A DNA stretch of 64,000 nt from Sphagnum magellanicum (lineage: Eukaryota; Streptophyta; Sphagnopsida; Sphagnales; Sphagnaceae). A program made the position numbers and the translations under genes. The stretch lies in assembly GCA_021904315.1 (NCBI GenBank), contig CM038922.1:16715347-16779346 (forward strand). The letters are read 5' to 3'. Positions 21,165 through 45,401 of the stretch are shown piece after piece. The notes under the pieces are model-generated. The model worked only from the letters and a program-made list of their open reading frames with translations, had not been told where the DNA came from and ran no database searches. Positions within the stretch are counted from its first letter, which is position 1. Each line of letters starts with the position of its first letter.

Positions 21165-24100
21165 TCACTCAGCCAACCACTCATCCTCGTACTCTTCCAT
21201 CATCTGTATCTCCAAATAATCCAAATAAGCCTCAAAGAACATTGCTTCATCTTCCCGCATCCAGGTTTCTTCCAGCTCATCAGATACCTGTATCTCCATC
21301 TGGGTTTCTTCCAGCTCATTAGGTACCTGTATCTCCTCTGTTGACCATGCTGTAACTGACAAATTGAGGGTAATCTGTTTGCCTTCATTTGTTCCTTGAC
21401 TGTTTGCCATGCGTGGATCCTCAGGAGCAGGCTCAGTGATGACAGGATATGACTCTGGGGTGTAGTCTGATGACAATCCTGGCAACTCAAACTCCAAAAA
21501 GCTTGCTTCAAAATTTGCATCCCCTCCTTGGCTTGTTGAAATATTCCCAGTGATGACCGGAGTGTGGTCTGATGACACTCCTGGCAACTCAGACACCAAA
21601 AAGTTTGCTTCCAAATTTGCATCCCCTCTTTGACTTGTTGAAATATTTTCATTGCCATCAGTCCCATGACATGCTGCATCCAGTCTTTTGAACAATTCTT
21701 TCATCTGCCCCAAGTTCTGCTGGGATTTCTTGTAGTTGTCACACAGCTGGCACAGAATATCCATGAAACTGCTAGTACAATGTGACGACATGCAAAAGGA
21801 ACAAACAAGTGAACATGAGTTGCAGTGTCCAGCTTCAATTGGTCCAATGACACAAAAACATCCATGAAAGGACAACACATTAATGCTTGTTGACAAGCCA
21901 TCTAGAACTTGTGCAATCTTGTCAAGCTCCATGGTCGCCCACTTCTTGACTTGCACTTTCAGTGTCCAGCTCAGGCGAAGACAGGCTGAGCTGTAAGAGG
22001 TCCCAGGCTAACATGGAGTAGAATATCCCATGACTGAGAAAGGATTTCAATGCACACTTGCAACAAGGCCATGAATCCTAGCAGACAGATACTTCACATC
22101 CAAGCACATCTTCTATTTGTCAAAGAAAAACCTAAATCAATACAACAAGAGTGCAGCTGTAACCTGTGATAGGCAACCACAAGTATTAGAGGATAACCTC
22201 CAGTAGGCATGACAGCGCCACTGCCATCATTCTCCACTGATTTTGTCATGTCCCAACAAGGGGTGTAGATATATAGGTAGTAAATCTGTTCAAAATACCA
22301 GGCTAACAAAGGTAGAAAAATCTGCATATAAAGCTTGTTGCAAAGTTTGGAAGTGTTAAGAAAAACTCAGCAATCAAGAGGCCTACCTAACGAAAATTGA
22401 AGCTGTACAAGAGTGCTCTGGACAGCAGTCTAGTACACAACCTTCATAGTTTAGTGAACTAATGGTCTTCAACTTGGGCAAGAAGTAGAGCAGAGCATAG
22501 AAGCTTCTTAAGGTGCATTATTTAAGAGCTCAGGAAATAAAATTGAAAATCCAGCCAGTCTTATCTATCCATTTGCTTGCCAATCACAGAGTGTAACAGA
22601 CAGACAGAACCATCTTAAGGTAAGACTCTGGACTGCCACGGATTGAACATTTTCAATCAGGTCTTCACAAACAACGGAAGTACAATAACTCTCATGAGTA
22701 TCAGAAATCTCCATACTCAATATTAAGGACACCAGAACCAGACCAAAAACCTTTCCTTTTTAGGTCAAGAAAAAAACTCCCATATAAGGACTGAAGAAGC
22801 AGGAAAAGGAAAAACATAGAAGCGAAGAAGTAGAACAAAAAGAACACGCCTGATAGTAACTTATCTATTACTTACTTACTGACTTCACAAGCTCCCTACA
22901 GGGGGTATAGGCCAGTGTAACCACTAGCCTGCATACTGAGTTTCTGTCACAAGTTTGGAAGCAACATGAAGACTCGACCATGCTACCTGCTAGCACCCTA
23001 CACCCACACAAGGCAAAACACAGAGAAAACAGATGGAAAAAGAAGAAAACAGCAGGCACATTAGGAATAAAGAACAGAACATAACAGATAAAAGGGAGAA
23101 GAAGAATGAAGGCAAAGTGGGCATAAAAAAAAACTCTAATATGAAGTCATTTGGAAAACTCTGAAAGAAAGTTTGTCAAAATTCCAAAAAGAAAGTTCTC
23201 CTTATCAAGCAAACAACTAGAGCTCTTTAGAATAATCTTCAAAAGGTAGCCTTTATTCTTCATAAGGACAATAAGACTGATCATCTTGAAATGAAGCAAA
23301 CTTTAAGCTTAACAGAAGCAATGGACATATAATCTTTGACTAGGCTCAGTCTCTACTGCAAAATGCCCACAACAATTATACAATAATCTGACTCTTGAGT
23401 TTCTATAGCCTTTCCAGAAGCCACCAGAAAACTCATCACTAGATTGCTAGCACTCAAGAAGCATAGCTGATTGAAAAGTCATTAGTATCCTCATTCAAGC
23501 TGCAACAAGCTTCTGACGATGATGTTCATTTTGTTTTTAGCTTGTCCCTGTACAAGCAAGCATCCAAGCCTAAGGCAAGGAGAGGCCTAAATAGAGTACC
23601 CTCTATTTAATGTGCCCTTCCTGCACCCTGGGCATATCCTTCAAGCATACTACTGGTGACTACTTGGACAAGCACATCTGCTTGTGCCACTGGAAATCAT
23701 ATCCAGTTGTTTCAACACATATCCAGAGAAAACTCTAAATAATGCTATGAAGGTCCCCCCATTTTGTCAGTTCCGGTCATACCAGAACAAAGACCCCAAG
23801 AAATGAGAAGTCAGAGTGTCGTGAGTGACACTCACAAAGTTTCAAACCATTACCTTCATCATGAATCGCAACAACTAACTGCTATTACTCCCCACTGACT
23901 TGATCAGCTCTCAACAGAGCTTGTAGTCATGTGTGTAATTAGTCTGCTCAAATTTTCAGAAAAAAATTATACAAAAATCTGAGTACTTTCCAGAAGCAAG
24001 TTATCATATCACTAGCACTCCAGAGGCATAGATAAAGAGAAAAGTCAATAGTATCCTCATTCAAGCTCCAACAAGCTTGTGACCGTAAGCTTCATTCCAA

Positions 24101-24490
24101 TTTAGAAAAAAGTGGCAATTAACAGGAATGTATATACATGATATATTAACAGGGAAGCTTAGAGTTGATTCTAGCTCAGGACTTGACCTAATTACCACAT
24201 AAGCCATCTCTCACCAAAGTTGCCTTTCTTTAAGGTTTGTGACTCCCAAACAGAAAGATTCATGGTGTCATTTTTACACTTACTGCAATCAGCCCAGTTC
24301 CAATCATGTTCATGGCAATGAAACATGCACATACATCAAAAGAACTAAACAGAGGGTGTAATCAATCAACCTGGAATATTCATATGTGTTAGGTATTCAA
24401 TACTTTGGGGAGGTAAGAAGCAACGAGAAGGATAACTTACCTTGCAGCAAGCGTTGCACTCTCATCCGGGGTTCCACCCCTATCAGGCAT
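21165..24490 (-). CDS. Gene A: unrecognised two-exon gene, short acidic protein (217 aa predicted)
   Basis: I do not recognise this family. Exon 1 is 24,490-24,441 (50 bp, MPDRGGTPDESATLAA plus two bases), ending at an AG|GTAAGT donor. Exon 2 is 21,768-21,165, after a CTAGCAG acceptor, and joins in phase to give about 217 residues. The protein starts hydrophilic and has a weak coiled coil (residues 20-45). It then carries two copies of a NISTSQ-GDAN-EA-FL-ELPG module, a Ser/Pro-rich linker, two copies of EIQV-(P/S)-(N/D)ELEET, and a very acidic tail (EYEDEWLAE). The homologous gene C has an exon 1 of exactly the same length and phase, which supports the model. The 2.7-kb intron is conserved with B and C, so further small exons are possible. 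Upstream lies a block shared with the NNF1-like gene. Confidence 0.55.
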
Positions 24491-25118
24491 GGTGAAATAT
24501 ACGATGAGCAGGTTTAACAGCAACCTTTGCAGTCTTTGAAGCCCTCTTCCCAGCCTTGAGCAGACCTCAGTTGATCTGCGATCAACACAAAAATTTCTCA
24601 GACAGAGCTCATAAAGTTGCAAAATTCCACATACACAAGCAGTTCAGTCCAACTTGCAACTGTAGAACTGATGGGAGAGTAAGTTTCTGATAGGAAGTAC
24701 TCGTCCATCTACTGAATCTTCTTCTTCTTCTCCTACTTCTTCGTAATGACTCTTAGTACTGCTGCTTGACAAGAAGACATTTTTCCCTTTCCTATTTCGA
24801 GATTGTAAGTTCACAACCAGCAATTCTCTAACACAAATGTGCTGTTTTGCTCTCACCTTTCAATTCCTGCGATCGCAATGAAGAGAAAGGAGGCTCGTCC
24901 GCCTCCTCCTCCACGCGCACTGTTCTGTGTTACTCTGCTTCTGTGTCTTCTTCCTCCTCTTCGGAACGTCTTCTTCTCCTTCCCTTCCCGTCTTTTTCTT
25001 TTGTAAGGATCGAACGCGTCCCCCTCGTCGTCGTCTTCTTCGACTACGCCTCGGCCCCTTGCCTCTACTTGTTTTTTTTTACTCAGGTTCCTTTCTTTAT
25101 GACTTCAACGGACAGGAT
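24491..25118 (-). promoter_or_regulatory. Gene A 5' region; contains the NNF1-type upstream block
   Basis: 24,520-24,650 is related to 45,410-45,510 upstream of gene C exon 1 (GATCTGC, CAGACAGAGCTCA, AAGTTGCAAAATYCCACA). 24,690-25,118 is the counterpart of 4630-5126 beside the NNF1-like gene and ends with the shared CAACGGACAGGAT. It probably holds the promoter and 5' untranslated sequence. Confidence 0.6.
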
Positions 25119-26460
25119 CTTCTATCTGTTTCCGAATCCGACAGTTCTCATCCCCTCCTGTTCTTCTTCTTCTTTGTCGTCGTCCGTAGTCAATACTTCT
25201 CACTTAGAGGGCACGTTAAATGTCTATTTTTCCAGCCGCAACGGACGACAGGTTCCATTTTTGAAGAGGAGATTTTGAGTTTGGATTGGGCATTTTCGGT
25301 TCCCTGTATTTTCCCCGCTATCTTCATCTTTCAAGATAAAGATATCTTTGAAGTTAAAGGTCAACAAAATTAATGAACGTAAAATTGCACCACCACTTGG
25401 ACCAATCTGAACCATTGAATGATTAAATCTAGAATCGGACAGTTAGATTGGAGAGATCGCAATCTAGGCGCTAAAAAATTTAATTTAAATAATAATTTTC
25501 ATCCTGAAAGTTGTTTTACCAAATAAATCCTGACAATCAAATTTCGTAACTTCAAGAGTACATTTTTGGGAATTCACTCGACCATCGATTTTGGTCCATC
25601 GCAACTATCCGTCCGTCCGTCCGACCTAGGTTGTTGTTCATCCTGTCATGCGGCTACATTTGGGCAGTACATACATGTCAGGGTTTGGTTTATTTATTTA
25701 TTTAATTTTTTATAAAGTTTTGTGGTTTCGAAAGTTTGGCAATATTTTCCAAATGTTTAGAAAAAAATTCGAATTTGCACTGGAAAAGGAAATATATATA
25801 CATATATATATCCAAAGTTTATTCGGTAACCAGAGTGCCAAGTTTCTCCCCCAGAAAAAACACCGGTCCGTGTAGTTGGCAGGGGTTCAAAGTTTCAGAC
25901 AATTGCAAATCTCTGGAGAAAAAATATAGCTGGTTCGTTATCCCTTGGGTTTTGTGGAAATCAAATCGAATTAGATTGCGGAACATGCACTAGCCTAATA
26001 AACCCCCCCCCCCCCCCCCTCCCCACCCAAAATCAAATTTGTTGTGCAGTTCTATAGGGGGGCGAAAACAGAAGCTTGTGTACAAGCCACCCACGGCACA
26101 AAAAGACAAGGCCGGACATAGTGCCAGACAGAGCTCGTTAACGTGTTTAGACAAGCCCAGACAAAGCCCATATAAGTTTTTTGACTTATAGGTCCGTGTC
26201 CACACATGCTGCTGCTGCGATTTTCAATTTCTCTGCTCGTGTCCTCAATCCCTTCTGTGTAAAGTAGTACTTTGGCAATATCCACATTATTTGTAGAAAT
26301 GTTGAAATTTTCACAATTTTTTTTTTCAAACAAAGTTTCATTTAACAAAAGAGAATTTAAAAAAAATTCTTGAACATTTTTATTTCGTTCTTTGAGATAA
26401 AATCTTGAAAATTTATGAATTATTCCAGAGAGGCGTCTTTAAGCTGGCCCCTTTACTACG
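25119..26460. other. Intergenic; C17 homopolymer
   Basis: No gene recognised. It contains a C17 run at 26,003-26,019, a TCCG simple run near 25,610 and a short TATATA run near 25,790. Confidence 0.5.
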
Positions 26461-26820
26461 GTATCTTATATATAAATTCACTACATCACTGACGGAGCTC
26501 GGGTTTCAGGCCGACCGGGCCCGGCGCTAATCGGAGGGCGGAATTTCCTGTTCCCAGTCTGTGGGCAAAGCTATTGGAGGAAATTAGGTTACGACATTCT
26601 AGCGCGGAACGGAGACCCCCCCGGGATAGCCGACGTCAAGAACGGGGTGCCGGGCCGGGTCCGGTCCGGACTGTGTTTGACGGAGCTCGGCAACTTTTGC
26701 TCCAGAGAACACCCACTGAGGGAAGTTATCAGCAGTCACTTTTCGGAAAGTTTTTGGTATGGTCGTTGCTGATTTTGGGTACTGTAGCTGTGCAAGATTA
26801 AGGAACGTCTCTCGGGAAAA
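26461..26820 (+). other. Small GC-rich island with TATA-like motif and a 75-codon frame
   Basis: A TTATATATAAAT motif at about 26,466-26,477 is followed by GC-rich, CG-rich sequence from about 26,490 to 26,720, sharply different from the AT-rich flanks. A complete frame at 26,574-26,801 (MEEIRLRHSSAERRPPRDSR...) has an Arg/Pro-rich start and a hydrophobic end (FGKFLVWSLLILGTVAVQD). I do not recognise it. It could be a first exon, a tiny gene, or the terminal part of a transposable element. Confidence 0.3.
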
Positions 26821-26852
26821 TTAAATTAAATTTTAACTCTTTTTTTTTTTGG

Positions 26853-27075
26853 AGGAATTGGAATGTGTCTTTGGTGTTGATGGAAAGATCTTGATGAGTA
26901 GGATTTAATGGAATTTATTTGGTAAGATTTGGATTCAGAAACGTGGGAGATATTGATTTTAAAAGTGATTTCCGGCGCTGAAAATTCCAAATAAATTCCA
27001 AAAAATGAGGTTTTGGAAGGAAAAATCAGTTGAGGACACAGTAACACTCGGGCCAACGGCACGGGCCACACTAGT
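26853..27075 (+). repeat. Dispersed repeat, copy 2 (partner at 20,617-20,800)
   Basis: See copy 1. Similarity is patchy but in the same order over about 200 bases. Confidence 0.55.
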
Positions 27076-28196
27076 TGATACAGTGTTTACATCTGGGGGG
27101 ATTTCCATTATTGTACTGCAGTTGTCTTCCCTCTGCTATTTGCTTTGATCTTTGGGGTTAAAGTGTTTTGGAATTCGATTTCCATCTTTGTTTTTGTTTG
27201 CAAAGATCTGCCAATATATTTCTAGTGTTATGGGATGACTAATTTAAAAAGAGAATCTTGTGTCGGCAAATTGTTCTTTCTATTTTCTGAGCAATCTTCG
27301 ATCTTTACTGGATCGTTCAGTCTGTCTAAAATCTGTGCCAGGATCTTTGTCTTGGATAAGAGTGTGTCCACACCACACACCAGACCGGTAAACAACTCCT
27401 TTATTTAGGAATAGAATTCCGGTTGCAGGATCACTGTCCTCACCCACAAAATGTCATAAAAGTCTTTTTAAACACTCAAAGATCACTTATGTCTTTACAT
27501 CTGGATGAGTAATAGTCACTGTTCAAATCGACAGTACAAAAAAAGCTTTTAAAGAGGTTGAAATGACCACTGCAAAATGGAACATCAAGAATCAATACCT
27601 TAGAACAGCAGGATTTGAGCTATTCTGCTGCAAGATTTAACGAAAAGGGGTGTTTGCCAGCGTGGGGTGGAGATGTTCTAAAGCCCTTGGAAGTGGGATG
27701 CATTATCAGAAGGGGGACAGCACTCAGCTACCACCTCACCCAGCCCCTTCTTCTCGGAATGCCCTCATCCTAGGGCATTATGTTTACAGGTATAAATTTT
27801 CTTGGCTCTGCTCTCAATGAATTGAATTGCTGTGTATTGAAATTGTGATATTATTTTTTGTATTTTTTTAATTAGCGCTTTAGTTAGAGAATCATATGTT
27901 TACTACATAAAGAAATCCATCACTTATTCTGAACAAATTCCTGTGTCTATATCTTTCCACTCCATGAGGCCCTCACATGGGAGCATTACCAGAATGGGGC
28001 TGGGTACAGAGCATAACCAGAATTTGGGACACCCAGTGCAGGGTCCCTTATTACAGTTATGCTTACAGTTATGCTCCCATCCTCACACCTAAGAATGGTG
28101 CTCAGTATGGGACCCTCCCAAAATGTTCGTCACATCCAAGTTTAGTTATTTACTTCTTCTTTTTTTCCCGATCCCACCTATAAAATTAAAAGTGAG
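27076..28196. other. Intergenic; nothing recognised
   Basis: Moderately AT-rich sequence without coding signals. A duplicated stretch near 27,980-28,110 has GGGAGCATTACCAGAATGGG followed by related GCATAACCAGAAT and GACCCT phrases. Confidence 0.45.
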
Positions 28197-28366
28197 ACTA
28201 CTAAGAGCAACCCACTTGGACCAATCAAACTATCTAGCCAATCAACAGCAAGTGTCAGGTTTTGTTTTGCCTTTTTACCAGCCTCTACGTCTTGTGGAAA
28301 AATGCTGGGCCAAAACCATTGTGCAGAGCCAAACTGGCATGTTTTGACTTTTTTTCATCCAATTTT
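28197..28366 (+). repeat. CCAAT-pair dispersed repeat, copy 1
   Basis: One of three related segments (28,197-28,366 plus; 39,413-39,620 plus; 63,739-63,945 minus). They share AGCAA-CCAC-TGGACCAATC, two CCAATCA boxes 17 bp apart (here 28,221-28,227 and 28,238-28,244), a GCCAAAACCATT-type segment, and AAACTGGCAT followed by a T-rich TTCATCCAATTTT end. Confidence 0.7.
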
Positions 28367-31300
28367 CTCTTGCATGGCCACGTATCAAGTACTGTGAAGC
28401 TGTTCTTAACCTGGGGATTCTTCTTCATTCTGTGTTCTTCTTCTGTATTCCTCTTCTTCTGCTTCTTCCCCTTATGAAGGCTTTCTGCTACATTCCTTTT
28501 TTTTCCTTTTTCCTTCTTCTTCCTCCTTTTTGCTTTCTTCCTTTGCCCTTTGATTTATTTATTTTTTGTTTGAAGTGCAATGAAGTGGCAGAAGTTATTA
28601 TTGGAAAAGAAAACACCCTGCTCATAGTGGACCATAACAATACAATCATCCACTAGGTTCCATTTCCATATGAACAAAATTGATAGATGTGTAATAATTT
28701 CATCCACTTCATTAAATCCAATTAGGTGTGTTGATGGTGTTTTTTCTTTTATATTTTGATAACATATGCTTTATTTGTACTTTTTGACATCACAAACTTT
28801 GAGATTTTCAAACCATTAATGTTTAGTTTAAATTATCCACAAGAATAAAAATATATAATTTAGTTTTAAATAAATATGGTTATGAAAAGAAATAAACGTT
28901 ATTCTGAAGTTTTCACATTTACCAAATTATTAAATTTTAATATTGAATATATCAATAATAACAATTTATCCCGAGAAGGTCAATAGTTAAACCCTCAATG
29001 GTTTAAGGTTATGGAAAATAAATAAATGGAAAAGAAATAATATCCCAACAAAACATTCACCCATATTAAATTAAAGAAAATCCAACAATCAACATGAAAT
29101 TTCATTTCACTTGATTACTTGGCTTAATGTTGAATAAAGAGAATTTTGAATATTATTTACATTTTGAATAAATGAGGGACTAATTAGTTCAAATTAAGGC
29201 ATTACAAATTGTTTCATGCAACATGCCATTTGCTTTAAGATCCCTAAGGCAAGCATTGTGGGAACTAATTAAAGGTATTCATCATGCAAGTATTGTTAAG
29301 ACGAAAAGAATTCCTTGTATTCCATAATGAGAAAGTCTTAATGTAGGATATTTAAACATACATCAAAATTGAACATAATATACTTAATACTAATGTGGTT
29401 TTTGCCATTGGCCTCAATGTGAATATCACCATAACCAATTGTGAAGTTTTATTTTTTATTTTTTAATTAATTTTCAATGACTTTTAAACTCTCAATGCCT
29501 ATTGTATACTTTGGCATAAATTTAATAAATTTAATATGTTTTCAATTTTTTTGAAAACAAATTAACCATGGTGTCAAAAATTCAAAATATTTAAATTGCA
29601 GGAATTTGGAATCAAACTATGGCCTAATATAGATAAGCACATTAGTTGTGAACACATTAACCACAAGGATAATAAGAGTACTTTGAAGTTGAGTTAGAAT
29701 TTAATATGTAAAAAAAATTTATGTAAAAAAGACCAAAGTAAAAAACTCACATGCTGAATCTTAAATTTTTAAATAAATTAATTATTTGACACTTAAGTGT
29801 CAAACCCACCCAGGTACTATGCTATAAAGATAAATGTTGTGCATGTAAATGATTGTGTAACACATCTTATAAAACCACGTAAATGTTACATCACAAGACA
29901 TTTGCCATTCAAAAATGTCAATTTACAAAAAAACATTAACTTTACATAAATAAGTTAAAATTTTGATAACTTATAGGGTTTAGTAAGTGTTTTTTTTTTT
30001 TGGAAAGATGATAAAGCCCCTAACACTACTAATGTGTTGCATACCCTTTTCCTACTTAAAATCCTATCATATTTTTTTGATAATTTTCTAGTGACCTTGT
30101 GAAAAATGTATTGTTCTTGTGACTAACAATTAGAAATTTTATCTAAAAATATTTATTTATTTCAAAAAAGAGGTAAAGTAAGATGGTTTTTAGTGTGGAA
30201 ATTTTTACCAAAATGTGAAATGTATATATTTTTTCACAATATTCTCATTCTTTTAAACAACATAATTGTCAAAAAAAATTAAACATTTTTTTTCCACCAC
30301 ATTTGGACTTTGAATTTAATATGGTAACCTTTTTTTAATAATTTTTTTTACTATTTAGGCAACATGTTAAATCCTTCTTGGGCTACTACCCATGATGCAA
30401 CATCATAAATGTTTTAAAAAATGTTAGTGGTCCAATAGTTTCAAATTGAGTATTTCCAATTTTTAAAAATGATGAATTATTATGTTCAATGCACCTTATA
30501 TTTTAAATTTATAACAATAATTTAGTGGTTGGAACAATGGATTTTGTCCCATATGTTACAAATTCAATTTTCAATGATTTTAACAAATGGCATTAACTGT
30601 TTTTCCTTCTTTTGACCAAACCTTTTGAAAATTATTTAACATTCAACATCAACACATTTTAAAGTAATAATCCCACATAATGCAAAAATAATAATAATTA
30701 TGCATTATAAGTTATCCTCCATACACTAAGCCAAATATCATAAGATCTTTCAAAGGTCTTTTGTAGTGTTCAATTTAAGTTTTAATATCATGTGGCATGT
30801 TATTGTGTATTGAAATACAAGTACATTATTCCAATAAGGGGTTTGTTTATATATATATACATTCTCATCGAATTGTTAATAATGATATATCAAAACATAT
30901 AATTGTTGATTTCAAAAAAAGGTATATTTTATAAAATAAAATAAAAGTAAAAAATATAAATATCATTGTTGTTGAATAAAAAGATTTAAGGAGTTTAATG
31001 AAACTTTAATGAACACTTCATGCAAATGAAAAATCAATGAGTTTTGATGAAAATAAGTCCAAATTGTTTCATGCCATTGGTTTAATGGGCACTTTAGATG
31101 AAGGCACAAAATGGAACAATCTTATTGGTCAAGAGCCATAAATTAGACCCAACACCGTTACATGAGAATTCAAAATCAACACAAACCAATTTGAGGTGGC
31201 ATTTACATGGCATCATTTTGAAAGGAAATTCAATTGGTTTCAACCCAAAAATGAAGCTCAAAAAGGAGTTCATGGTTTGGATGTAAATTAGGGTCCAAGG

Positions 31301-32128
31301 TTGTATTTTCATTGTTTCTTTTACTCTTTTTTTAAGTTGAAATTATGCAAGAATAGAAGACATTTTGTGGATTGGGGACATTGTTGAGAACAGACCAATC
31401 ATTCCATTTTTTAACACATCTAATGTTGACATAGCTAGATTCGTAGATTCACACAAAATTGTTGCTCAAAGGAATGCATTTTCAATCTTGCAAATGCACA
31501 AAATGAGGACAAAAGTTTTTGGCCATGGAGGGTTGGAGTGTCCATTTTCACAAATTGAGGGATATTTGGATTTTCAAGAAATCTTTACTTACAAAAAGAA
31601 AGGAAGAAGGTGGTTGTAATTGTGATGAAAGAGGAAGATGAAGAAAGTGAAGGGTTAAAAAAAATTGAGCAAATAATGAAGTATTCCATTTGATTGCACT
31701 ATAATGAGAAATGGAGCTTGAATTTGCTAAAAATGTGAAAAAATAAGGAAAATTTTAATTTGGTTGAAACCCTAATTATGTTTGTTTTGATATAATTTTT
31801 GAAGAGATTTTTCTTTCGAATCTAAAACTTGAATCAATTGATAGAATTTTTGAAAGCAAAATAAACAAAAAAAAAAATTCAAATTGGGCCTTTGTTTCTT
31901 GCCCTTGGCCCCCTTTCCCCCATTATAGGTCACCATTTTAGGTGCAACGAGGTTTGAACTAACATCTCTTTGGGGGAAAGGGGAGGAGTTAATCACAAAA
32001 CCAACTTATTTCAAATGTTTTGATAAGAATTGCATTAACTTTATTAATGTAATCAATTTTGTTATTTTTGTTTCTAGGATTGCTTTTAGCTCATAAATCA
32101 TAGTTTTTGATCCTAATTCTTTTTTTTT
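28367..32128. other. Very AT-rich gene-poor region
   Basis: About 3.8 kb without recognisable genes, dominated by A/T runs. It holds the palindrome at 29,785-29,804. Open frames near 31,100-31,620 (plus) do not resemble known proteins but lie just upstream of the PIF/Harbinger relic and could be part of it. Confidence 0.5.
29785..29804. repeat. Perfect 20-bp palindrome
   Basis: TTTGACACTTAAGTGTCAAA reads the same on both strands. It sits in AT-rich non-coding DNA, with no neighbouring gene. Confidence 0.9.
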
Positions 32129-33708: not shown

Positions 33709-34703
33709 TTACTACTTTAATTTATACAAGAATATTTTATCTCATGTTTGTATTTTTTTCATTCAAGACTTGAACCTACAACCCTAATCAAAGCTTGAAA
33801 TATGTTATAACTTAACCTTGTACACATTGTTGAAACATCTATTCAAAAAAACTTTCAAAAATTTGACTTTTCATGTATCCAATTGCCCTTTCCATATGTT
33901 CCAAACTTTTGGTGGCATGTCAACAAATTCTAAAAAAAATAGTAATGCACTCATCATATTCGAATCTTCTACAATAACTACCTGTTGCAATGAAACCACT
34001 TGTGCAATGACTCAATGCATTGCCATAATAAAAACTAGGACCACCATATCTTGGTGTATAGTAGGAAGCAAGAATTGGAAAAAAAAAAAACAAAGAAAAA
34101 ATGTCAACCTAATCTTGTCACATGTGAATCTCACATTTTTACTAATTGAACCTTCAAATTGAACCTTATGCTTTTAATCACACTCCTTGTACCTTATGAA
34201 AAAATAAATTTTTAATGTGAAGAAAGGTCCAATTCAAGGATTCAATTTGTCCAAATTGGCCCCTAAGATTTTGAACCCTCGATGGACCTATAAAGTGGCC
34301 CTAAGATCCACTTTGATACACATTGAAAACTTATTTCAATTTAATATAATCAACCTTCATTTGGGCAATCAATCAATGATGAAGGCATTATGAATTGAAC
34401 ATTAGAACTATGATAGTACAATAGAGTTATCCATAAAGTCACCTCGATTGGAGACCCTCCAAACTTGACATGAGAAGAGGACTATGTGTTTATGTTGTAG
34501 GGCCTCCAATAGTCAACCTTCAAATCACCTTGATGCTCAAGTCTCTAGAATGAAAGGCAACCCACACTCTCTTTAAGGGACCAACATAGACCTCCATGGA
34601 ACAAAAAGACACACAAATCCAACTACGAAAGAAAGTAGCAAACAAAAGTGTCAAAATCCACCAACAATCTTGAGTTGCAATGACTTTGTGAGGTAACCAC
34701 AAT

Positions 34704-34892
34704 GATGCACCCACTAGGCAAGAAAACTCCAAAACTCAAAGTTTTCTTTTTCTCAAACTTAAGAAGTGCAACCATAACCAATGCTAGCTTCTACATAACG
34801 CACCTAGTAGGCAACAAAACCCCAAAACTCAAAGCTATTTCTTTTTCAAACTCTCAAAGCCCAACTAGAACAAATGTTAACTTCTATTGAGC
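34704..34892. repeat. Two-copy tandem repeat, period about 96 bp
   Basis: GCACC-(C)-ACTAGGCAAGAAAAC / GCACCTAGTAGGCAACAAAAC, then CCAAAACTCAAAG, a TTTCTTTTTC tract and GCTAGCTTCTA / GTTAACTTCTA repeat once after about 96 bases. Copies differ at many sites. Confidence 0.6.
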
Positions 34893-35124
34893 CTCCAATG
34901 CCAAGGAAGTTTGTAAGGGATGCAACTTATAGACCTGACGTTCAACAACTATTGATGAATGCAAAAGGGGAAGGCTCTAGAGTTCATGAGAGACAACAAC
35001 ATAACACAATAGTGTAGCAAATTAACTTGAAGTGTTGAAACCTATGTTGGAAGACACCAGAGATTTTGCTGAAAACACCACAAAAGAGCAACTAAAGCTT
35101 TTGCCAAGAACAAATCACAAAAGT

Positions 35125-35250
35125 TGCACACCACACTCCTTGCCAAAAAAACATGAAACCCTCTATGTGCAACACTCCTTGCCAAGAACACAAGACACGG
35201 AAATAAAAACATGAAATTTCTTTGTGCAACACTCCTCATCGAAAACATAA
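35125..35250. repeat. Short degenerate tandem repeat
   Basis: CACTCCTTGCCAA-AA-ACA, CACTCCTTGCCAAGAACACA and CACTCCTCATCGAAAACATA recur with AACATGAAA and a TGTGCAA lead, at 50-65-base spacing. Confidence 0.5.
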
Positions 35251-35599
35251 GAAAGGGAGTTGGACACAAAAATGAAAACGTTAAAACCCATCACTGCAAT
35301 GCTCCAACCTCCTTTCTTAAAACACTAAAAATGAAATAAAAAACAGTAGAGAGCACCAAACACCAAACTTAAATGACCCCAAGCTTGGGTGCAATAACAA
35401 GTTTCCTACCCTGTTGAATTGCTTTGTAAACTTTTGGCCCATGTATTGCCGAAACACAGGGTTCTAGCGCTGAATTTACAAGACTATACAAATAACATTA
35501 TTATATAAATCTTTTCAACAAAGACACCGCCAAAAAGGAGGGTATACTCAGAGGTCTAGAAGCCGATTTCCATAAGACACATGACACCAACTTGCTCAG

Positions 35600-37560
35600 C
35601 CAACCATTCATAGTCAATCCAATGTCATTGCATCTTCCTCCATCTGGGTTAACTCTGGCTTCACACAAGCCAAAGAGACCTTCAAACAACAACTGGTTGC
35701 ATTTTCTAGCATATGGGTTTTGTTCAGCTCATTGGGTACCTGCATCTCCTCTGCTGACTTAAGTTGTAACCAAAAAGTCTTTGGTATTCTCTTCACCTTC
35801 ATTCATTCCTGGAGCATTTGCCATGTGTGACTCCTCAGGAGCAGGCTCAGTGATGACTGGAATTAACTTTGGGGTGTAGTCTGAAGACAAAACTGGCAGC
35901 TCAGACTCCAAAAAGCTTGCTTCCAAATTTAAATCCCCTATTTGGCTTGTTGAACCATTGCCATTGCCATCAGTCTTGGTATGTTCTGCATCCAGCTTTC
36001 CGACCAATTATATCATCTCCTCCAATTTCTCCCCCAATTTCTTGTTCTCATCATGCAGCTGGCGCAGCATGTCCAGATGCTGCATTACAACATGATAACA
36101 TGCAAAAGGAACACATGAGTGAATGTGAGTTGCAAGTGTCCAGCTTCAATGGGGCCAATGAAATAAATAATCCATGGAAGGAGAATATATTCATGATTGT
36201 TGGCATGCCATCTAAAATTTGGGCATCCTAGTGAAACACTGTGGTTGCCAGATTCCTGACTCAGACTTGCCTGTACAATGTTCTATGGCATGAAAATGAG
36301 GCCTGACCCCATAAGAGGTCCAAGTTCTAGGTAACAAGTTCAACATGTATGCTTAGTGAAACTTCAACTGTACAGCTAGCTACTTATTGCAAGGTGCCAA
36401 TGGACCTAAAACAATCCAGCCATCTGCTTGCAGCACAAAACCATAAATTGCACCATGTCCTTCCATCTGACATGACAGCATTCAGTAATGAAAATTATGA
36501 ACCTCCTGACTGCAAACTTTTAAGGAAAATCAGAAAAAATGAAACTGAATTCAGAGCATCCTGACACAGCAGGTCAAATGTGAAGCACCAAGCAACATTG
36601 ATGTGATTGTATGGGAAAAGTTCAACAAAAGAGAGTAAAAGCGATATCAGGGATTACCCAGCAACCCCAATACTGCAGGGTTGGCCAACATGGGTACCAT
36701 ACAGTATCAATGTGATGTGATTTCAAACCCACAGTGCTTGCAAATTAAGGCAATGGATCCTAGCAGATGGGTAGTTCATATCCCATCACATCTTCTATTT
36801 GTTATTTAGCAAAACCTAAACACTACAACAAATAAGAGTGCTGCTGTAACCTCTGACAGGAATTCACAAAATAATAGACAATCACCTTGACCATGCATGG
36901 CAGTGACAAGCTGCCATCACTCTCAACTGACTTTGTCATATGCCAACAACAGGTGACAATAAGGAAATGGTAAGCTGGTCAAAATACTGGACCCGCAAAG
37001 ATTGGAAATTCTGCATCTGCAGTATGTTGCACATTTCTGGAAGCTGTGAAAAAAACTCAGCAATCAAGAGACATAGCTAATAAAATGAAAGCCCTGTTGC
37101 AGGGCATAGTCTAGACAGCAGTCTAAGTGGCAACCTGAATATCTTCAACTAGGACAAGAAACAGAGGACAACATAGAAGCTTCTAAAGGTGCATCATTTA
37201 AGAGTTCAGAAAATTGAAAATTGAAAATCCAGTCAATCTCATCTAGGTATATATCTGCTGGCAAGTCACTTGGTTTGATAGACAGACAGGTCTAAAGTGA
37301 GGGAACAGTGGAAATTGTTGTATGGTGAATATAATCAGTAGTGTGAAATCCTCACAACTAACAGCAATTGTGGACACAGAAACATGACTCTTCTTGGTTG
37401 CCACTGCAAACTGCCCACACAACAGCAATAAAAATGAAAGCGATTGCAGTCATCAATTCCACATCTTCATGGTCTATTATGTGTCATTTACATGAAGCCA
37501 CTGTCAAATATTTATTCGAAGGGCAGAGACAGCTTGATTCTTGGCAGAAACTGTGACTAG
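35600..37560 (-). pseudogene. Gene B: truncated pseudogene copy of gene A/C
   Basis: 36,080-35,600 on the minus strand is a degraded copy of exon 2 of genes A and C. It has a coiled-coil start (MLRQLHDENKKLGEKLEEMI), then LDAEHTKTDGNGNGSTSQ, SSDYTPKLIPVITEPAPEES and an acidic C-terminus related to C (THMLENATSCCLK, ELTQMEEDAMTLD). An in-frame TAA follows LEEMI, and the C-terminal part is in another frame from about 35,800, so it cannot make the full protein. Homology to the A and C intron continues to about 37,560 (GCATAGAAGCTTCT, TTGAAAATCCAGTCA, ACAGACAGG) and then stops. No counterpart of exon 1 was found, so the 5' part is missing or replaced. Confidence 0.7.
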
Positions 37561-37862
37561 ATCCTTCAAGTCGAAGATTCTAGCTCTAAAGAAGCCATAG
37601 CTCAAACTTCAGTCTCTGCTGCTTGGAAGCCAAGATTGATCAAGCAGTCCAGAGCAATCATAAATTTGTCAAATTCATGACAACAGCTGATACTTGTGTG
37701 GCTGATGTCTTCATTTCCTATGCAAACTCAAACAACATTTCATTATGAAAACACAGCCATATTGAACAGGCACCATACTATGTCAGGTGCAGATCCACCT
37801 CACTCTTTTGAGCTCCCAAGTGCTTTATCTGGCTGATTTACCAAGGTGGGTGAAGGGTCTCC

Positions 37863-38336
37863 ATGACAAGCAGTTGGAAGGGTCATCTGCAGAGCTTGGA
37901 ATTGAAGAGCACACTACTATCTAAGTCTTGCTCTTCTGTTGCCAATTTGGTGCCAAGTGTAAAATTCCATCAAGTTTCTCAAATCCAGATGGTGGAAGCT
38001 CCCAGTTCTAAGCACCTGCAAATACACAACAGATCCAACATGTCAACTCTGTGGTGTCCGTCCAGCTGGATGTGGATGATGCATTTAGGGTCTGAGAGAA
38101 AGGATCTTACAAACCTGGATCCAGACCCTGCAATATTGACCTGCAATTGGGAGGGAGGGCGCACAGAGAGAGCAGCAGTCCTGGACTATAATGTTTGGAG
38201 TACAATTAGCTCCAATCATCACGTGACACCAAACTCAAGAGCTGATTGGAATCAAACTGGAAAAGATGCAGGATCAACGGAGGAGAATTTCGCAGGAGAA
38301 AGTCGTGGCAATACAGTAAGCTGTCCTCTGCCCTAG
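37863..38336 (+). other. Open frame of 157 codons, not recognised
   Basis: A complete plus-strand frame (MTSSWKGHLQSLELKSTLLS...) opposite to the neighbouring pseudogene. Its composition is not unusual, but it matches no family I know and has no supporting splice or promoter signal. It lies where homology to genes A and C has ended and may be part of an unrelated insertion. Probably not a gene. Confidence 0.2.
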
Positions 38337-38429
38337 TTATATGGAAGGTATAGTTTACACAACATTGCTGGTGGCTAACTTCTTCTCTCTGCTCATCACC
38401 CCTACCTAGTTATCTGTTGTTCTGCAGCT

Positions 38430-39130
38430 GGATGCATAGACAAAATTGAGCATGAATCCAATGTAGCCTGTCCAGCAACATGGCTCGTGACAAGACGAAA
38501 CAACCTTACTAATTCGTATCAGAACTGGCCTTCTATGATCTTCTTCAAGTCCTAAACAGAGTTGCTACTGAAAATCTTACGCCAGGCAACAAGAGGTGTT
38601 TTCTTCCTGTCCTGTTTGGTATGGCACACGGACGGCATTTTCTGGCCTATAAATTCAGCGTAGATTTACAATCGCATACAGCAAACTTGAGAGCGGACTA
38701 CCATCAAAAATACGAAAGAATGCGGCGGAAGGAGTTTCATCAAAGGCACAATTGCGCAGGGAGAAAGATTTCGTGACACAATAAAACTCTCTGCAACGTC
38801 TATCCTTCTGTAACAGATAACAAACACAACGTTACTACTAGTCGAAAACATACTACTCCTCTCCTGTCCATCAGCCCCTGCCTATGCGAGCCTGTGTTTC
38901 TACCGGAAGCATAAGCAAAATCGACCATCCCTCTACTACCATAGCGTTCAACAGCAAAGTTCAAGAGATAGAGAAATGAAAATACCTTGTTTGGAATCAG
39001 AATTGGTCTTCAATCTTTATCAGGTCCTCAAAACAAGCTCCTACTGCAGCATCTTGTTCACTAATCCTGCTTCACAAGAGGAATTTTCTTCGTGTCCTGG
39101 TTTGGAAAAGTTCCAAACACCATCGCTGAT
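38430..39130 (-). promoter_or_regulatory. Duplicated block related to the EAF6 upstream region
   Basis: 38,870-39,060 matches 62,360-62,590 upstream of EAF6. They share CCGGAAG-ATAAGCAAAATCGA, GTTCAAC, AGAGAAATGAAA, TACCTTG and ATCAGAATTGG, and a potential CAAG|GTAT splice donor on the minus strand (exon end 38,986 here, 62,510 there). 38,440-38,620 is a more diverged second copy (TATCAGAACTGGCC, TTCAAGTCCT). It probably contains 5' non-coding exon sequence; which gene it now serves is unclear. Confidence 0.5.
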
Positions 39131-39412
39131 CTGTTGCACACATGGAAGATGAGGAGTCCTTTGTTCCTTCAAGCTCCAAATTTTTTTGTAAAAATTTCAA
39201 AAAAATAAATCGCAGACTGAGCTTACAAGATTGCTGGTTAATAAATCACGAGCACCGAAGCGGATCCGTTTCGTCGTCGAAAATGCCTCGCGAGTTCTTC
39301 CGCTCTGTGAAGGTGCGTCCAGATACACTAGAATATTTATGTAAGGTTTTTTAAGTACAGGAGAAGGTTCCAACGATGAAACTGAAACTGAGACAGTAAA
39401 TAGGTGGGGGAG

Positions 39413-39620
39413 TACTAATAGCAAACCACCTGGACCAATCATTATGATGGGCCAATCAAAAACACTGAGCAGCAGTTAGATCATATTTATTACACTCTTT
39501 TCTGCAGGTGTACGGCGTGGTTGTGCCTTTTACGAGCCACCGCACGCAGTGCAATTATATACTAAGTCAAAACCATTATCGTGAGCCAGACCGGCATATT
39601 TTGACTTTTTTTGAGAATGT
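39413..39620 (+). repeat. CCAAT-pair dispersed repeat, copy 2
   Basis: Second copy of the family listed at 28,197. CCAATCA boxes lie at 39,435-39,441 and 39,452-39,458, again 17 bp apart. It ends in GGCATATTTTGACTTT. Confidence 0.75.
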
Positions 39621-42349
39621 TCAGTTCTGGTTTAGGAAGCATAATTTAAGAACCAACCCGGTTCTTTTTTTTTTTTAAAGTCATTTTAGAGAATCAGTCA
39701 GGGTTTCAATTTTTTTTAAATATACAAATCCATCCAGTTCTCATGCAAATGATTCTCATAAATGTGAGAATCATCGATTTTCAAAGGCGGTTCTCCGCTA
39801 TCGAATATCAAAAATTTACATTATTTTTTAATTTTTAAAGTCTAATTTTTCAATAAAAAAAGGAATGATTACAAATATTATAATAAATTTTAAGGAAGGA
39901 AAAAAAAAATGGAGAAAGAACAAGAAGAACCCATTTCAAAGTTTGGATTTATTGGTTATTGGGCATGTTGGTTTGAATGAGATAGGGAAGCACTTGAGAA
40001 AATCATTAAGTAGTGATAGTTGTTTAATGGTTATGTGGAACATCAATTGTAGTAACAACAGTTATAGCAACAATAACAATAAAAGAATCAAGTTATCAAA
40101 TTCCAAGTATTTCATGCACAACATATTTAACATATGTAACATTGAGGAAATCAAAAATGTTTTTTTTGGGTTTTTTGGTTATGGTGTTGTGTTGTGGATT
40201 AATTGCACATGAGCCCAAAATCCATTTGTAATTTTGTACTCATAGAAAATGAAATTTTAGAATTTTTATTGGTGAGTTAATAATTTCACGGGGTTTTTAG
40301 TTGACATATGAGTTTAATGTGAGTGGTGATAAACAACAACAATTGCAAAATGTGGATTTCAACTTAGACATGAAGGTTGATGCCACCAAGGCAAAAACAT
40401 GATGTAAAGATTCTTGCTTTTATTTTGGTGTCTTTATCTTTTCAATTGTTCCTCTAAATTGTGTTTAAGTTTTTTATTTCTTTTGTTGGAAGAATGTGAC
40501 GTCTTTTTTGCTTATAACTATGGTGGGTCCAAAGTCATTTTTATTACAATCAACGAGATGTGTGGTTCTAGGTGCTGATGTGATAGGAAATTAAATATTG
40601 ACATATTTAACAATAACTCCAAGAACAATAACATGTATTGGAAGTGATAGTTTCTTCCCAACTAAAGCAAGTTCTATCCCCATTTCTACAAGCTAGAAAC
40701 ATCTTGGAAAGCAAGTCAAATTTATTAACGTCATGTAAAGTATGTCATGTGCTACCATATTAGTGCTTACACTTATCATTGTTCAAACATCACATAAAAT
40801 AACATATAGTCATTCTAATTGATGCATCATACTTAAATCAAATGAAAATTCACCTACAACAAGTAGAAATCCAAGCCTGAAACACAAAACAAAACACAAC
40901 ACAAAATTATGTCCAATTTTTTTTGCATAAAACACAAAAAAATCTACAAAACAAAAAATACACTATATTTTGAAATTTGAAACTATCAAAAGTGATTTGA
41001 GAACCCACAACTTGGATTTATAACTTAAACACCAAATAACCCAAATCATGTTCACAATTAAATTGGCTCCAAGCTAAAAACATAATTAACTATGTTAACC
41101 AAACTTATTGTTAAACTAATTGTGACTTAATTCAGTAGTTAAACTAAGCCTCTTGACAAGTACAACAATATGTTGCATGATGAGACCTAGATCTTTGATC
41201 ATTTCTCATCACAACGTATTAACACGTTAAAACATGTTTTGAAATTACAAGAGATTTGAAACAGATTTGAAGCTATGATTTAAGAAATGAATATTCGATG
41301 AGATATTTTCATATTACATTTAGGCATGCTTCTAGATGAAGTAACTATTAGGATATTTACTAATAATGCCTAACTAACTTCCCATAATAGTTTCTACAGT
41401 CTGTAAATAGGAGAGGACCACCATGCATTCTAAACCTTATTCTTCTTGCTTCTTCCTTGCGTGAAAGTCCATGAATACAACGTTAGTTTTCTTTGCATGG
41501 AGCTATGTATGTTTGGGGATATGTATAGTAAGTATAGAACAAACAACCGATATGTTTTTTTCATGAGGCAATTGCATATCAGTGATGCTAAGATAATCCA
41601 AGCATTGGATTATTGTGACAATGTAACATTATTGTTTGCTAAGCAATGTGATATTCTTCGAAAGTCTCTGATCTTGCATAATTAAATCTCTTTAATTAAT
41701 TCTTATTGATCAAGTATTTCCAAAAATGAGTGTCCCACCACTTGGTTCATGTGGCTTGGAATTTCCAACAAAGTTTTCTCAAAATTCCTAACTCAACTCA
41801 AGGCAACGCTATGGAAAAAACATCTTACATATATTGGTTGAGTCTCTATTAGATGCAATGGTTGGATTTCCAACTAGACCAAACACAACAACAAACCCTT
41901 TTTTTTTTTTTTTAATTTCCAATTATGTGATATAGTCAAACCGGTGATCATCAACAAGAAGATTTGACCAAATATGGCTACAGACCAGATATGAAAGTAA
42001 AAAATAAACTTACAATCATTTTGTATTTTGGCTACTTGCTAGATGTTGTAGATATCCAGCAATTTCTTTAAATTTTTTGAAATCTGGCAAATTAGGGCCA
42101 TTTATCCACAAAAATCCTGCTGAGTACTTATACTACTCTTTATTATTTGCAGGCTATGCCATTGCACTCAGCATCTATGTCACTATGATCCTCAAGTCCC
42201 CACACTCTCCTTGTTATAGCAGAATGCCAACTATGGTATTTGGCTTTCTCCCCAAAATGGACAAAATTAGAGACATGATCATGTGACACCTTATGTTATT
42301 GTTATCTGCGATACCACAATACATCCGCAATCCACAATACCCACATAAA
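39621..42349. other. AT-rich intergenic region
   Basis: No recognisable gene. Short frames at 39,865-40,212 and 41,446-41,685 have no known relatives. The 41,340-41,470 stretch (CTGTAAATAGGAGAGGACCA followed by TTATTCTTCTTGCTTC) has the look of an old LTR promoter but has no recognisable ends or partner. Confidence 0.4.
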
Positions 42350-42436
42350 GTTTGAGTGAATCTGGCAGAGAACTTGTTATGGTGTTCAAAAATTCTGCCA
42401 ATGTTCGATGTCTGCTGGTGCCTGGAAGATTTTCAC

Positions 42437-45401
42437 TCAGCCAACCATTCCATCCTCAGACTCTGGTGTTGGTGCACCTTCCTCCATCTGGATCAATTCT
42501 TTCTTTGCCTCAGCCAAGAAAATCTCGAGGCAACATTCTTCTGAATCTTCCAGCATATGGGTTTCATTCCGGTCATACACACCTGGGGTATTCTGATCCC
42601 CTTCCTCTGTTCCATGAGAATTTGTCAAGTATGGTTCTGGAGGAAGATATTCAGCAATGACTGGAATTGACTCTGGGTTATAGTTTGAAGCCATTCCTGT
42701 CAACAGACAGTTCAAAGCACTTTGTTCCGAATTTGCACCCTCTCTTCCGCTTGTTGAAGCATTCTCATTGCCATCAGTTTGGCGATGTCCTGCATCCCAT
42801 TTTCGCAACAGCCCTATTATCTCCTCCAATTTCTTCACAGATTTCCGGTTGCAAGTATGCAGATCATACAGAAGATACATGCTTTGGCTTGTTGAACCAT
42901 TCTCATTGCCACCACTCCGGTTGCATTCTGCCTCCAGTTTTGTCAACAAGTTTATTGCTTCCCCCAATTTGTCCCCCGATTCCACATTGGTTTCAAGCAG
43001 CCGGGACAGCAAATTCAAGAGAACAGTAGTATCATGTGAAAACCTGCAAAAGCAACAAACAAGTGAACATGAGTTGCAAGTGTCTAGCTTCAATGGGGTC
43101 AATGAAAAAAAAAAATTCATGAAAGGTGAATACATCCATGCTTGTTAACATGCCATCCATGGTTGTGCCCACTTCTTCAATTTACCCCTTCAATCTCCTT
43201 TTGCTCTCGGGAAGCCAGGCTGGGCAATAAAAGGCCCCAGGCTAACCTAGGTAAAGTACTGCATGACAGAGAGGGGATTTCAACCCATACTTCTTGTGAC
43301 AAGCCATGAATCCTAGCAGATGGATCCTTTATATCCAACCACATCTTCTATTTGTTATCAAAGCAAAACATAAACCTGTGATAGGCAACCACAAAGTAAT
43401 AGAGGATAGCCTCCACAGGTATGGCATTGACCATGGCCATCACTTTCCGATGATTTTGTCATGTGCCAACAAGGGTGTACATACATAGGTAGTAAATATG
43501 CTCAAAATACTGGGCTAACTAATAAAAATCTTGATATACAGGTTGTGGCACATTTCTGGAATTAAAAAAAAAACCTCAGCAATCAAGAATCATAGCTAAT
43601 AAAAATTGAAGCCATACCAGGGTGCTCTGGCCTGCAGTCTAGTCTGCAACCTTCATATTTTGGTGAATTAATGGTCTTCAACTAGGGTGAGAAGTAGAGT
43701 AGAGCATAGAAGCTTCTTAAGGTGCATTGTCAAAGAGATCATAATATGGAATTGAAAATCCAGTCAGTCTCATCTGTCCATTTGCTTGCCAATCAGAGTG
43801 TCACAGACAGACCCATTTGAGGTAAGACTCTGGACTGCCATCAAACATGTTCAACATCGTCTTCCCAGATAGTAGAAATAATGGAACACTTGACTATTCT
43901 CAGTCTCTACCTAAAAGCGCCCGCAACAGGAAGTGAAACTGGAAATGATTGTACTGATCAATTTCAGCTCTTTATGGTCTATTATGTATCAACGTCAGTA
44001 CGCTTCCAACAGCAGGGGTAGATAAGTGTCAGAATCTGCTCAGAATTTCAGGCAAACAATTAACCAAAAATGTGTGTCTTGAGCTCCTATCACAATATCA
44101 ATAGCATTCAAGAGGCATAGCTGATAAAAAGGCATAGCTGATAAAAAAAGCCAACAGTAAGTTTTGTTTCATGTTAGCTTGCCTCTACACATGCAAGCAT
44201 CCAAACCTAAGGCATAGAGAGGACTATATAGAGGGTAGTGGTTGCAGCCTGCTGCACCCTGAACATATCCTTTGACCACACAACTGGTGACTACTTGGAT
44301 ACAGTACATCTGCTGTAGCCACTGAAAATCATATCCAGTGGCTGCAGTGTATCCAGAGAAAACTATAGATAGCACTTTGAAGGCCTGTTCTCTCAGTTCC
44401 CGCCAAGCCAAAACAAACAAGAATGAGTGCAGTCATAGTGTAATCAGTTGTGAGTGACACTGACAAAGTCTCAGACTGTCACCTTCATCATGAATGGCAG
44501 TGACTAGCTGCCATTATACCCCCATTCACTTCATCAGCTCTGGCCAACATTGTTTGCAGATGAGGGTATAATAGTTTTGCTAAATGTTCCAGACCAACAA
44601 TTATACAAAAATCTGAGTCATCAGTTTCCCTTGTACTTCTGGAAGCAACTCATCACATCACTACCACTCAAGAGGCATAGCTGATGAGAAAATTCAATAG
44701 TGTATCCTCATTCAATCCCCAACAAGCTTGCCAGAATAAGTTTCATTTCTAGCTTGCCCCTTTACAAGCAAGCATCCAAGCCTAATGCATAGAGAGGCCT
44801 ACATAGGGGGTAGTGGTTGGGACCTCCTGCACCCTGAACATATCCTTCAAGCACACCACCGGTGCAAGACAGTCTTCAAGGTTCATACTACAGTTTCTTT
44901 ATAGGTGCCTGTTTTACAAGAGATGCCAGGGAGGGTCTGCAGGTCTTCAGTATGCTCTGGTTTATCAACCTTCAGATGACATACTTTGGACAGAGATGAC
45001 AGACCTAGGATTAAAGAACTTTTTCACCCAGCAACCTTCAGATAATTGCTGACCACACAAAAATGACAATCAACAGAGAAGCTGAGAGTTAGTTCTAGCT
45101 CAGGTACTCACTGCACAGCTATCACTCACCACAATTCCCTGCCAGGAGCATATTAAGATTTGTGTGATTCCAAACAGAAAAAAACAGGGTGTCATACTAT
45201 GCTCCAGCCAGTTGCAATCATATTCATGGTGACAAAATGCACATGAATTAAAACCACTAAAACAGAGGGGCAATCAATCAATAGGTTATCCATCTGGGTT
45301 AGATATTTACTACTTTGGAGAAGCAACAAGCAATAAGAAGGTTTAACTTACACTGTTGTGTAGTCTGTGCGCTTATAACAGGATTTACCCTTGTCCGGCA
45401 T
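42437..45401 (-). CDS. Gene C: paralogue of gene A, two-exon short acidic protein (218 aa predicted)
   Basis: Family not recognised. Exon 1 is 45,401-45,352 (50 bp, MPDKGKSCYKRTDYTT plus two bases) with a GTAAGT donor, the same length and phase as in gene A. Exon 2 is 43,043-42,437, after a pyrimidine-rich TTGCTTTTGCAG acceptor, joining in phase to give about 218 residues. The protein has two related heptad-like modules (LLETNVESGDKLGEAINLLT and RKSVKKLEEIIGLLRKWDAG), each followed by a GGNENGSTS/DGNENASTS motif. Then come a Pro/Ser-rich linker and an acidic C-terminus (ELIQMEEGAPTPESEDGMVG). It is the least damaged copy. The 2.3-kb intron is collinear with that of A. Upstream sequence shares pieces with the regions of A and NNF1. 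Function unknown. Confidence 0.55.
44095..44960. repeat. Internal duplication within the gene C intron
   Basis: CTCAAGAGGCATAGCTGAT followed by AGCTTGCC, ACAAGCAAGCATCCAA, AGAGAGG, GTAGTGGTTG and CACCCTGAACATATCC occurs at about 44,105-44,290 and again at about 44,662-44,860. The gene A intron has the same arrangement (about 23,450-23,670, partly repeated at about 24,010-24,100), so the duplication predates the split of A and C. Confidence 0.6.

What the first reader, a model, noticed from the sequence alone, without database searches (positions are those of the whole stretch)
21165..45401. Three same-strand copies of an unrecognised acidic-protein gene within 24 kb
Genes A (21.2-24.5 kb), B (35.6-37.6 kb) and C (42.4-45.4 kb) share exon 2 and a long collinear intron. 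A and C have a 50-bp first exon with identical length and phase but different residues after MPD(K/R)G, and predict 217 and 218 residues. The proteins are strongly diverged and carry internal module duplications (GNEN-STS, ELEET), while their introns align well. This suggests a fast-evolving, lineage-specific family, with B already dead.
Basis: partly seen in the sequence, partly recalled or inferred. Interest (0 to 1): 0.72.

Follow-up and report, generated by a model that had tools for sequence, protein, structure and literature searches.

The report
Fast-changing plant gene cluster, function unknown
A plant chromosome (probably of a peat moss) carries a row of six related copies of a short gene not found elsewhere in that genome; five still look able to make protein, one is dead, and their protein-coding parts seem to change about as fast as, or faster than, their non-coding introns.

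Summary
A, B and C are three of six same-strand copies over about 80 kb; D, E and F lie beyond the window. Five (A, C, D, E, F) share one anatomy: spliced 5' leader, a 47-50 bp first coding exon (MPD/MPE, phase 2, GTAAG), a long intron, and an open second exon. That signature occurs 5 times on the minus strand of 194 kb and 0 times on the plus strand. B lacks exon 1 and is broken. Predicted proteins have 217, 218, 176, 211 and 168 residues, pI 4.05-5.19. No Pfam family reaches its cut-off, and searches of the same genome found no convincing copy outside the cluster. In BLAST-chosen intron blocks, coding sites differ more than introns in 4 of 4 pairs (3 at p<0.01); in fixed intron windows, in 9 of 12. 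dN/dS is 1.08 (0.55-2.29) for A-C and 0.45-0.60 otherwise, so positive selection is not shown. Part of the 'collinear intron' is dispersed repeat. Best reading: a real, fast-changing birth-and-death family of acidic proteins. Function is inferred; transcription and presence in relatives could not be tested.

The parts
24441..24575 (-). Gene A, transcript exon with 5' leader (24575-24491, behind a cag acceptor) and coding exon 1 (24490-24441, 50 bp, phase 2)
   Evidence: exon-1 signature once per intact copy; leader inferred by eye
21769..24440 (-). Gene A intron (2672 bp, gtaag...cag)
   Evidence: its 3' part shared with B, C and D
21165..21768 (-). Gene A coding exon 2 with stop; 217 aa in all, pI 4.05
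21457..21647 (-). In-frame internal duplication in A exon 2: 21559-21647 and 21457-21545, 90% identical, 102 bp apart
   Evidence: one search gives slightly wider limits
22684..23305 (-). Dispersed repeat inside the A intron (about 620 bp matched), at many other places in the genome
   Evidence: query 1196-1817; L004, L007, L008 share 0.78-0.99 kb of aligned length with each other
23371..23705 (-). Second dispersed repeat inside the A intron, also on many other contigs
   Evidence: query 796-1130
24692..25118 (-). Presumed promoter and first 5' leader of A; 72% identical to the region upstream of the Nnf1-like gene (4628-5126)
   Evidence: promoter role inferred
35595..36261 (-). B pseudogene: end of intron and exon-2 part (best BLAST match A, 76.5-80%), early TAA and frame changes
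36512..37658 (-). B pseudogene: intron part, 76.7% identical to D over 1182 aligned positions
38286..38453 (-). B: remnant matching the region upstream of D exon 1; the D stretch that holds exon 1 has no match in B
45352..45427 (-). Gene C, transcript exon with 5' leader (45427-45402) and coding exon 1 (45401-45352, 50 bp, phase 2)
   Evidence: leader inferred by eye
43044..45351 (-). Gene C intron (2308 bp)
42437..43043 (-). Gene C coding exon 2 with stop; 218 aa in all, pI 4.57
42749..42981 (-). In-frame internal duplication in C exon 2: 42887-42981 and 42749-42843, 70.5% identical, 138 bp apart; other limits than in A

Best explanation
A to F are a tandem birth-and-death family of small protein-coding genes with a kept skeleton (5' leader intron, tiny MPD/MPE first exon, long intron, one or two terminal exons) and a fast-changing product. 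SHOWN by sequence: six same-strand copies, five intact gene models, one dead copy, signs of exchange in B, in-frame module duplications, coding divergence at or above that of most intron stretches. INFERRED: the proteins are made and act inside the cell. A, C and D are probably largely disordered acidic proteins with short helical segments (heptad-like LxxLLxKLxA module; C-terminal CLExxLxxxExxLIQ) that bind other proteins as adaptors. Copies diversify by unequal crossing-over or gene conversion, in-frame module duplication and a splice-site shift, under weak constraint or changing selection such as a conflict (defence or reproduction) would give.
For: Coding: five of five non-B copies allow a model with canonical splice sites, phase 2 and an open frame. 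The exon-1 signature, written from the copies, occurs 5 times on the minus and 0 times on the plus strand of 194 kb. Exon-2 gaps are multiples of three in 16 of 26 against 16 of 88 in introns (p=4.3e-5): C-D 6 of 6, A-D 6 of 8, A-C 4 of 8, E-F 0 of 4. Simulated neutral decay keeps 140 aa or more of frame in 0.041-0.069 of 20,000 trials at 0.10 substitutions per site (the value apt for E) and 0.013-0.025 at 0.15 (apt for A, C, D); F was not simulated. dN/dS intervals lie below 1 for A-D and C-D. Fast change: coding above BLAST-chosen intron blocks in 4 of 4 pairs and above fixed intron windows in 9 of 12. Family. Exchange in B: D nearer than A in 5 of 6 intron windows where both align, A nearer than D in some exon-2 windows. 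No known domain. Composition: A, C and D on the disordered side of the charge-hydropathy line, E and F on the folded side; highest 19-residue mean hydropathy 1.49.
Against: No transcript or protein evidence. A and C were picked because they were open; D, E and F were found afterwards by homology. E-F gaps do not support frame keeping (0 of 4; the two differ in exon structure there). For A-C alone dN/dS does not differ from 1. Gap counts come from overlapping pairs and are not independent. In 3 of 12 fixed intron windows (A-D 300 bp, C-D 300 bp, E-F 5' 250 bp) the intron differs more than the coding sites. The adaptor and conflict role has no direct support.
Confidence: 0.62

Rival explanations
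1. Relaxed, decaying paralogues: a duplicated gene whose copies are losing function at different speeds; B died first and A, C and D are simply still open.
For: A-C dN/dS near 1; E-F gaps not in multiples of three; B already dead.
Against: Intron divergence is high (K 0.19-0.36 in the blocks), and at that distance neutral copies would seldom stay open. Gaps are in frame in C-D and mostly in A-D. A-D and C-D dN/dS intervals lie below 1. The A acceptor moved by exactly 21 nt.
Confidence: 0.22
2. Positively selected arms-race genes: amino-acid change driven above the neutral rate, for example in immunity or gamete recognition.
For: Coding sites differ more than BLAST-chosen intron blocks in four of four pairs, p<0.01 in three. 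Modules duplicated independently in A and C.
Against: dN/dS is at most 1.08 with interval 0.55-2.29, and 0.45-0.60 in the other pairs. In 3 of 12 fixed intron windows the intron differs more than the coding sites. Introns may be held back by gene conversion or function, which would give the same contrast.
Confidence: 0.17
3. Non-coding or RNA host genes: the product is an intron (such as a small nucleolar RNA) and the exons are unconstrained.
For: Introns mostly better kept than exons.
Against: No Rfam family in the window at gathering score; one bacterial CrcZ hit far below its cut-off in the five loci searched permissively. Open frames and in-frame gaps argue for coding. Plant small RNAs that are not in Rfam are not excluded.
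Confidence: 0.06
4. Cargo of a transposable element rather than a gene family.
For: Dispersed repeats lie inside the introns, and transposon relics are near.
Against: Exon sequences were found only in this cluster at E<=0.05, with all six copies on one strand.
Confidence: 0.03

Closest known systems
Tandem birth-and-death families whose introns are better kept than exons (snake-venom phospholipase A2 genes, recalled; the habu genome paper PMC6062510 seen as title and start of abstract in a listing only)
   Same: Tandem copies, dead copies, coding parts changing faster than introns.
   Different: Here no hydrophobic N-terminus, no known fold, dN/dS not shown above 1, and no homology claimed.
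Lineage-restricted (orphan) genes of mosses as a class (PMC5908804 on a dual-coding moss gene seen as title and start of abstract in a listing only)
   Same: Proteins without known domains, restricted distribution suspected.
   Different: This is an intron-bearing six-copy array; restriction to a lineage is untested here.

Membership tests
Lineage-specific orphan gene family | No match to known protein families | tested here: met
   No Pfam match above cut-off; one chance-level hit of A to DHX37_C at E about 0.1. None in NCBIfam, whose models are prokaryotic. PDB searched with the A-C-D profile (0 hits) and with E (one at E=0.95); F not searched
Lineage-specific orphan gene family | Absent from related lineages | not testable with these tools
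   No other plant genome or transcriptome is held
Lineage-specific orphan gene family | Transcribed and translated | not testable with these tools
   No RNA or peptide data
Tandem birth-and-death multigene family | Linked copies of common descent, some intact, some dead | tested here: met
   Six copies on one strand, five intact models, B dead
Tandem birth-and-death multigene family | Exchange between copies | tested here: inconclusive
   B nearer D than A in 5 of 6 intron windows where both align; in exon 2 nearest A in some windows, C or D in others; no formal recombination test
Positively selected (arms-race) genes | dN/dS above 1 | tested here: inconclusive
   1.08 (0.55-2.29) for A-C; 0.45, 0.45 and 0.60 in the other pairs
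Positively selected (arms-race) genes | Coding divergence above that of introns | tested here: inconclusive
   4 of 4 pairs higher against BLAST-chosen blocks, p=0.0043, 0.15, 0.0027, 0.009; 9 of 12 against fixed windows, 3 of 12 the other way
snoRNA host genes | Known small RNA in the introns | tested here: not met
   0 Rfam matches at gathering score in the window; one sub-threshold bacterial hit in five loci
Transposon-borne gene | Dispersed copies of the coding part | tested here: not met
   Own-genome searches with five exon proteins gave matches only inside the cluster at E<=0.05; outside only E 3.05 and 4.22

The most novel reading that the evidence does not exclude
An undescribed, peat-moss-restricted family of acidic intracellular proteins kept by diversifying selection in a fast-turnover array, in which gene conversion homogenises introns while selection drives exons apart, and with which a neighbouring kinetochore-type (Nnf1-like) gene shares a promoter.
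Probability: 0.17. Interest if true: 0.6.

Novelty: new member of a known kind. Interest (0 to 1): 0.35.

Why it matters
If transcribed, the array is a compact case in which exon, intron, splice-site and module evolution of a domain-less gene family can be followed over six copies, probably in a peat moss, and a starting point for asking what such families do. As it stands it is an ordinary kind of finding, with an exon-against-intron contrast that is unusual but neither unprecedented nor uniform across the introns.

Tried and rejected
Rejected: chance open frames (simulation, signature count). Non-coding host gene. Transposon cargo. A second reading frame at the end of E with a hydrophobic stretch looked like a membrane segment, but its F counterpart carries a TAG, while the other frame is open in E and F and their gaps there, read by eye, are in frame. 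Homology of the A-F proteins to the Nnf1-like protein: Pfam sees Nnf1 only in the 3941-4564 gene; only upstream sequence is shared.

Led nowhere: four full-text searches of open-licence PMC papers listed none on such a family; none of them could search by sequence.

Limits: dN/dS rests on 88-124 filtered codons per pair; the filter keeps codons in windows with at least 30% amino-acid identity and few gaps, which favours conserved codons. The intron blocks come from BLAST matches and lean to the conserved; the counts typed into one search are their p times n, rounded, one block per pair. Fixed-length intron windows gave K 0.15-0.75. The simulation starts from present sequences and treats copies as independent.
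Full report
WHERE IT IS. The window is G000:C16:16715347-16779346 of a genome of 438,994,042 bases in 31 contigs. That size equals the 439 Mb reported for the Sphagnum divinum assembly (PMC9946827, passages seen only). The organism is therefore probably S. divinum, an inference from size alone.

THE OBSERVATION. B (35.6-37.6 kb) has sequence homologous to the intron and exon 2, an early TAA and later frame changes.

SIX COPIES. Searching the flanks and the genome gave three more same-strand copies beyond the window. In continued window coordinates D has exons 71077-71031 and 67057-66574 (176 aa), E has 87254-87205 and 86259-85674 (211 aa), F has 101681-101632, 99169-98926 and 97815-97603 (168 aa). 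In the 194 kb read, a pattern written from these copies (ATGCC, G or T, GA, then GTAAG at this distance) occurs five times on the minus strand, once per intact copy, and never on the plus strand. B has none: the D stretch that holds exon 1 (D 71501-70447) has no match in B, where 38286 and 37827 lie much closer together. Upstream of each ATG examined (A, C, D, E) lies a cag acceptor; the leader lengths (85, 26, 77, 36 bp, counted by eye) differ in phase, so this part looks like a spliced 5' leader and not coding.

NOT DISPERSED. Own-genome protein searches with the exons of A, C, D, E and F matched only the cluster, apart from single hits at E 3.05 and 4.22 (one search listed only E<=0.001); a rejected frame of E gave one more at E 2.47. 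No Pfam family reached its cut-off, NCBIfam gave none, and the PDB gave none for the A-C-D profile and one at E=0.95 for E.

INTRONS. Of 66 matches of the A region in the own genome 58 lie outside the cluster, nearly all in query bases 419-1817, at 68-84% identity: these are dispersed repeats. The 3' ~0.9 kb of the intron matched only the cluster, but for one weak match on C10. Only 40 of 1998 candidates were scored. Three repeat loci share 779-992 aligned positions with each other. So the collinear intron is partly common descent and partly repeat.

CODING EVIDENCE. In exon-2 alignments 16 of 26 gaps are multiples of three against 16 of 88 in introns (Fisher p=4.3e-5; C-D 6 of 6, A-D 6 of 8, A-C 4 of 8, E-F 0 of 4; pairs not independent). 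The internal duplications in A and C lie 102 and 138 bp apart, both in frame, with different limits. The A acceptor has moved exactly 21 nt from the C/D site. In simulations with intron-derived rates, exon 2 keeps 140 aa or more in 0.168-0.244 of 20,000 trials at 0.05 substitutions per site, 0.041-0.069 at 0.10 and 0.013-0.025 at 0.15 (A, C, D, E; F not run). A and C were picked for being open; D and E were not.

RATE. NG86 on filtered codons: A-C dS 0.36, dN 0.39, ratio 1.08 (0.55-2.29; 88 codons); A-D 0.45 (0.26-0.77; 96); C-D 0.45 (0.22-0.82; 96); E-F 0.60 (0.35-1.00; 124). Differences per coding site against one BLAST-chosen intron block per pair: A-C 0.299 and 0.212 (p=0.0043), A-D 0.333 and 0.284 (p=0.15), C-D 0.358 and 0.256 (p=0.0027), E-F 0.245 and 0.164 (p=0.009). 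Against twelve fixed intron windows (last 300 and 150 bp, first 250 bp, four pairs) the coding sites differ more in 9 and less in 3 (A-D and C-D last 300 bp, E-F first 250 bp). So coding sites change about as fast as introns or faster, strikingly for A-C, while dN does not clearly exceed dS. Positive selection is possible and not shown; gene conversion of introns is an alternative. Exchange is suggested by B: in the six intron windows where A and D both align, B is nearer D in five (0.75-0.85 to D, 0.58-0.83 to A). In exon 2 it is nearest A in some windows (0.85 against 0.73; 0.74 against 0.68) and nearer C or D in others, D at the 3' end.

PROTEINS. pI is 4.05, 4.57, 5.13, 4.67 and 5.19 for A, C, D, E and F. 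A, C and D fall on the disordered side of the charge-hydropathy line, E and F on the folded side; the highest 19-residue mean hydropathy is 1.49. E and F share a C-terminal extension (GA.WW...PVGRMF) absent from A, C and D. The role proposed, an intracellular adaptor in some conflict, is inference.

NEIGHBOUR. The region upstream of A (24692-25118) is 72% identical to that upstream of an intronless Nnf1-like gene at 3941-4564 (Pfam Nnf1, E=7e-6). A copy of that gene with 98% protein identity lies on C8; DNA identity of 97.4% begins at window 4661 and runs to the end of the fetched piece.

VERDICT. A genuine, sizeable, fast-changing tandem family of unknown function. It is ordinary in kind; four full-text searches listed no paper describing it, which is weak evidence of novelty since none searched by sequence.

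Noticed in passing
3941-5126, minus strand: Intronless Nnf1-like (kinetochore) gene whose upstream 0.5 kb is 72% identical to that upstream of gene A, suggesting a shared or captured promoter. A 98% identical protein is encoded on C8; two pieces of a more distant copy 141 bp apart, one with a TGA, lie on C11 and may be intron-split.
   Followed up: partly
46721-46793, minus strand: Sequence upstream of C matches, over 81 aligned positions at 75%, the stretch just before the Nnf1-like ATG (4570-4649).
   Followed up: no
25021-25130, and G000:C7:6360401-6360893: Part of the presumed A promoter occurs as four neighbouring matches on C7 at 75-84% identity.
   Followed up: no
48762-49343: Tandem array of units of about 83-85 bp (offsets) with a 274-codon stop-to-stop frame across it.
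   Followed up: no
57718-59963: Head-to-tail duplication of about 1.1 kb at 92% identity.
   Followed up: no
19530-19892 and 55017-55574: Transposon relics: a Pif1 2B-domain piece (E=2.1e-19) and a DDE_1 endonuclease piece (E=1.2e-13).
   Followed up: no
F locus, continued window coordinates 98925-97816 (in L042): F has an extra intron of about 1.1 kb, holding sequence that also lies in the A and C introns, where E reads straight through 18 nt in frame.
   Followed up: partly
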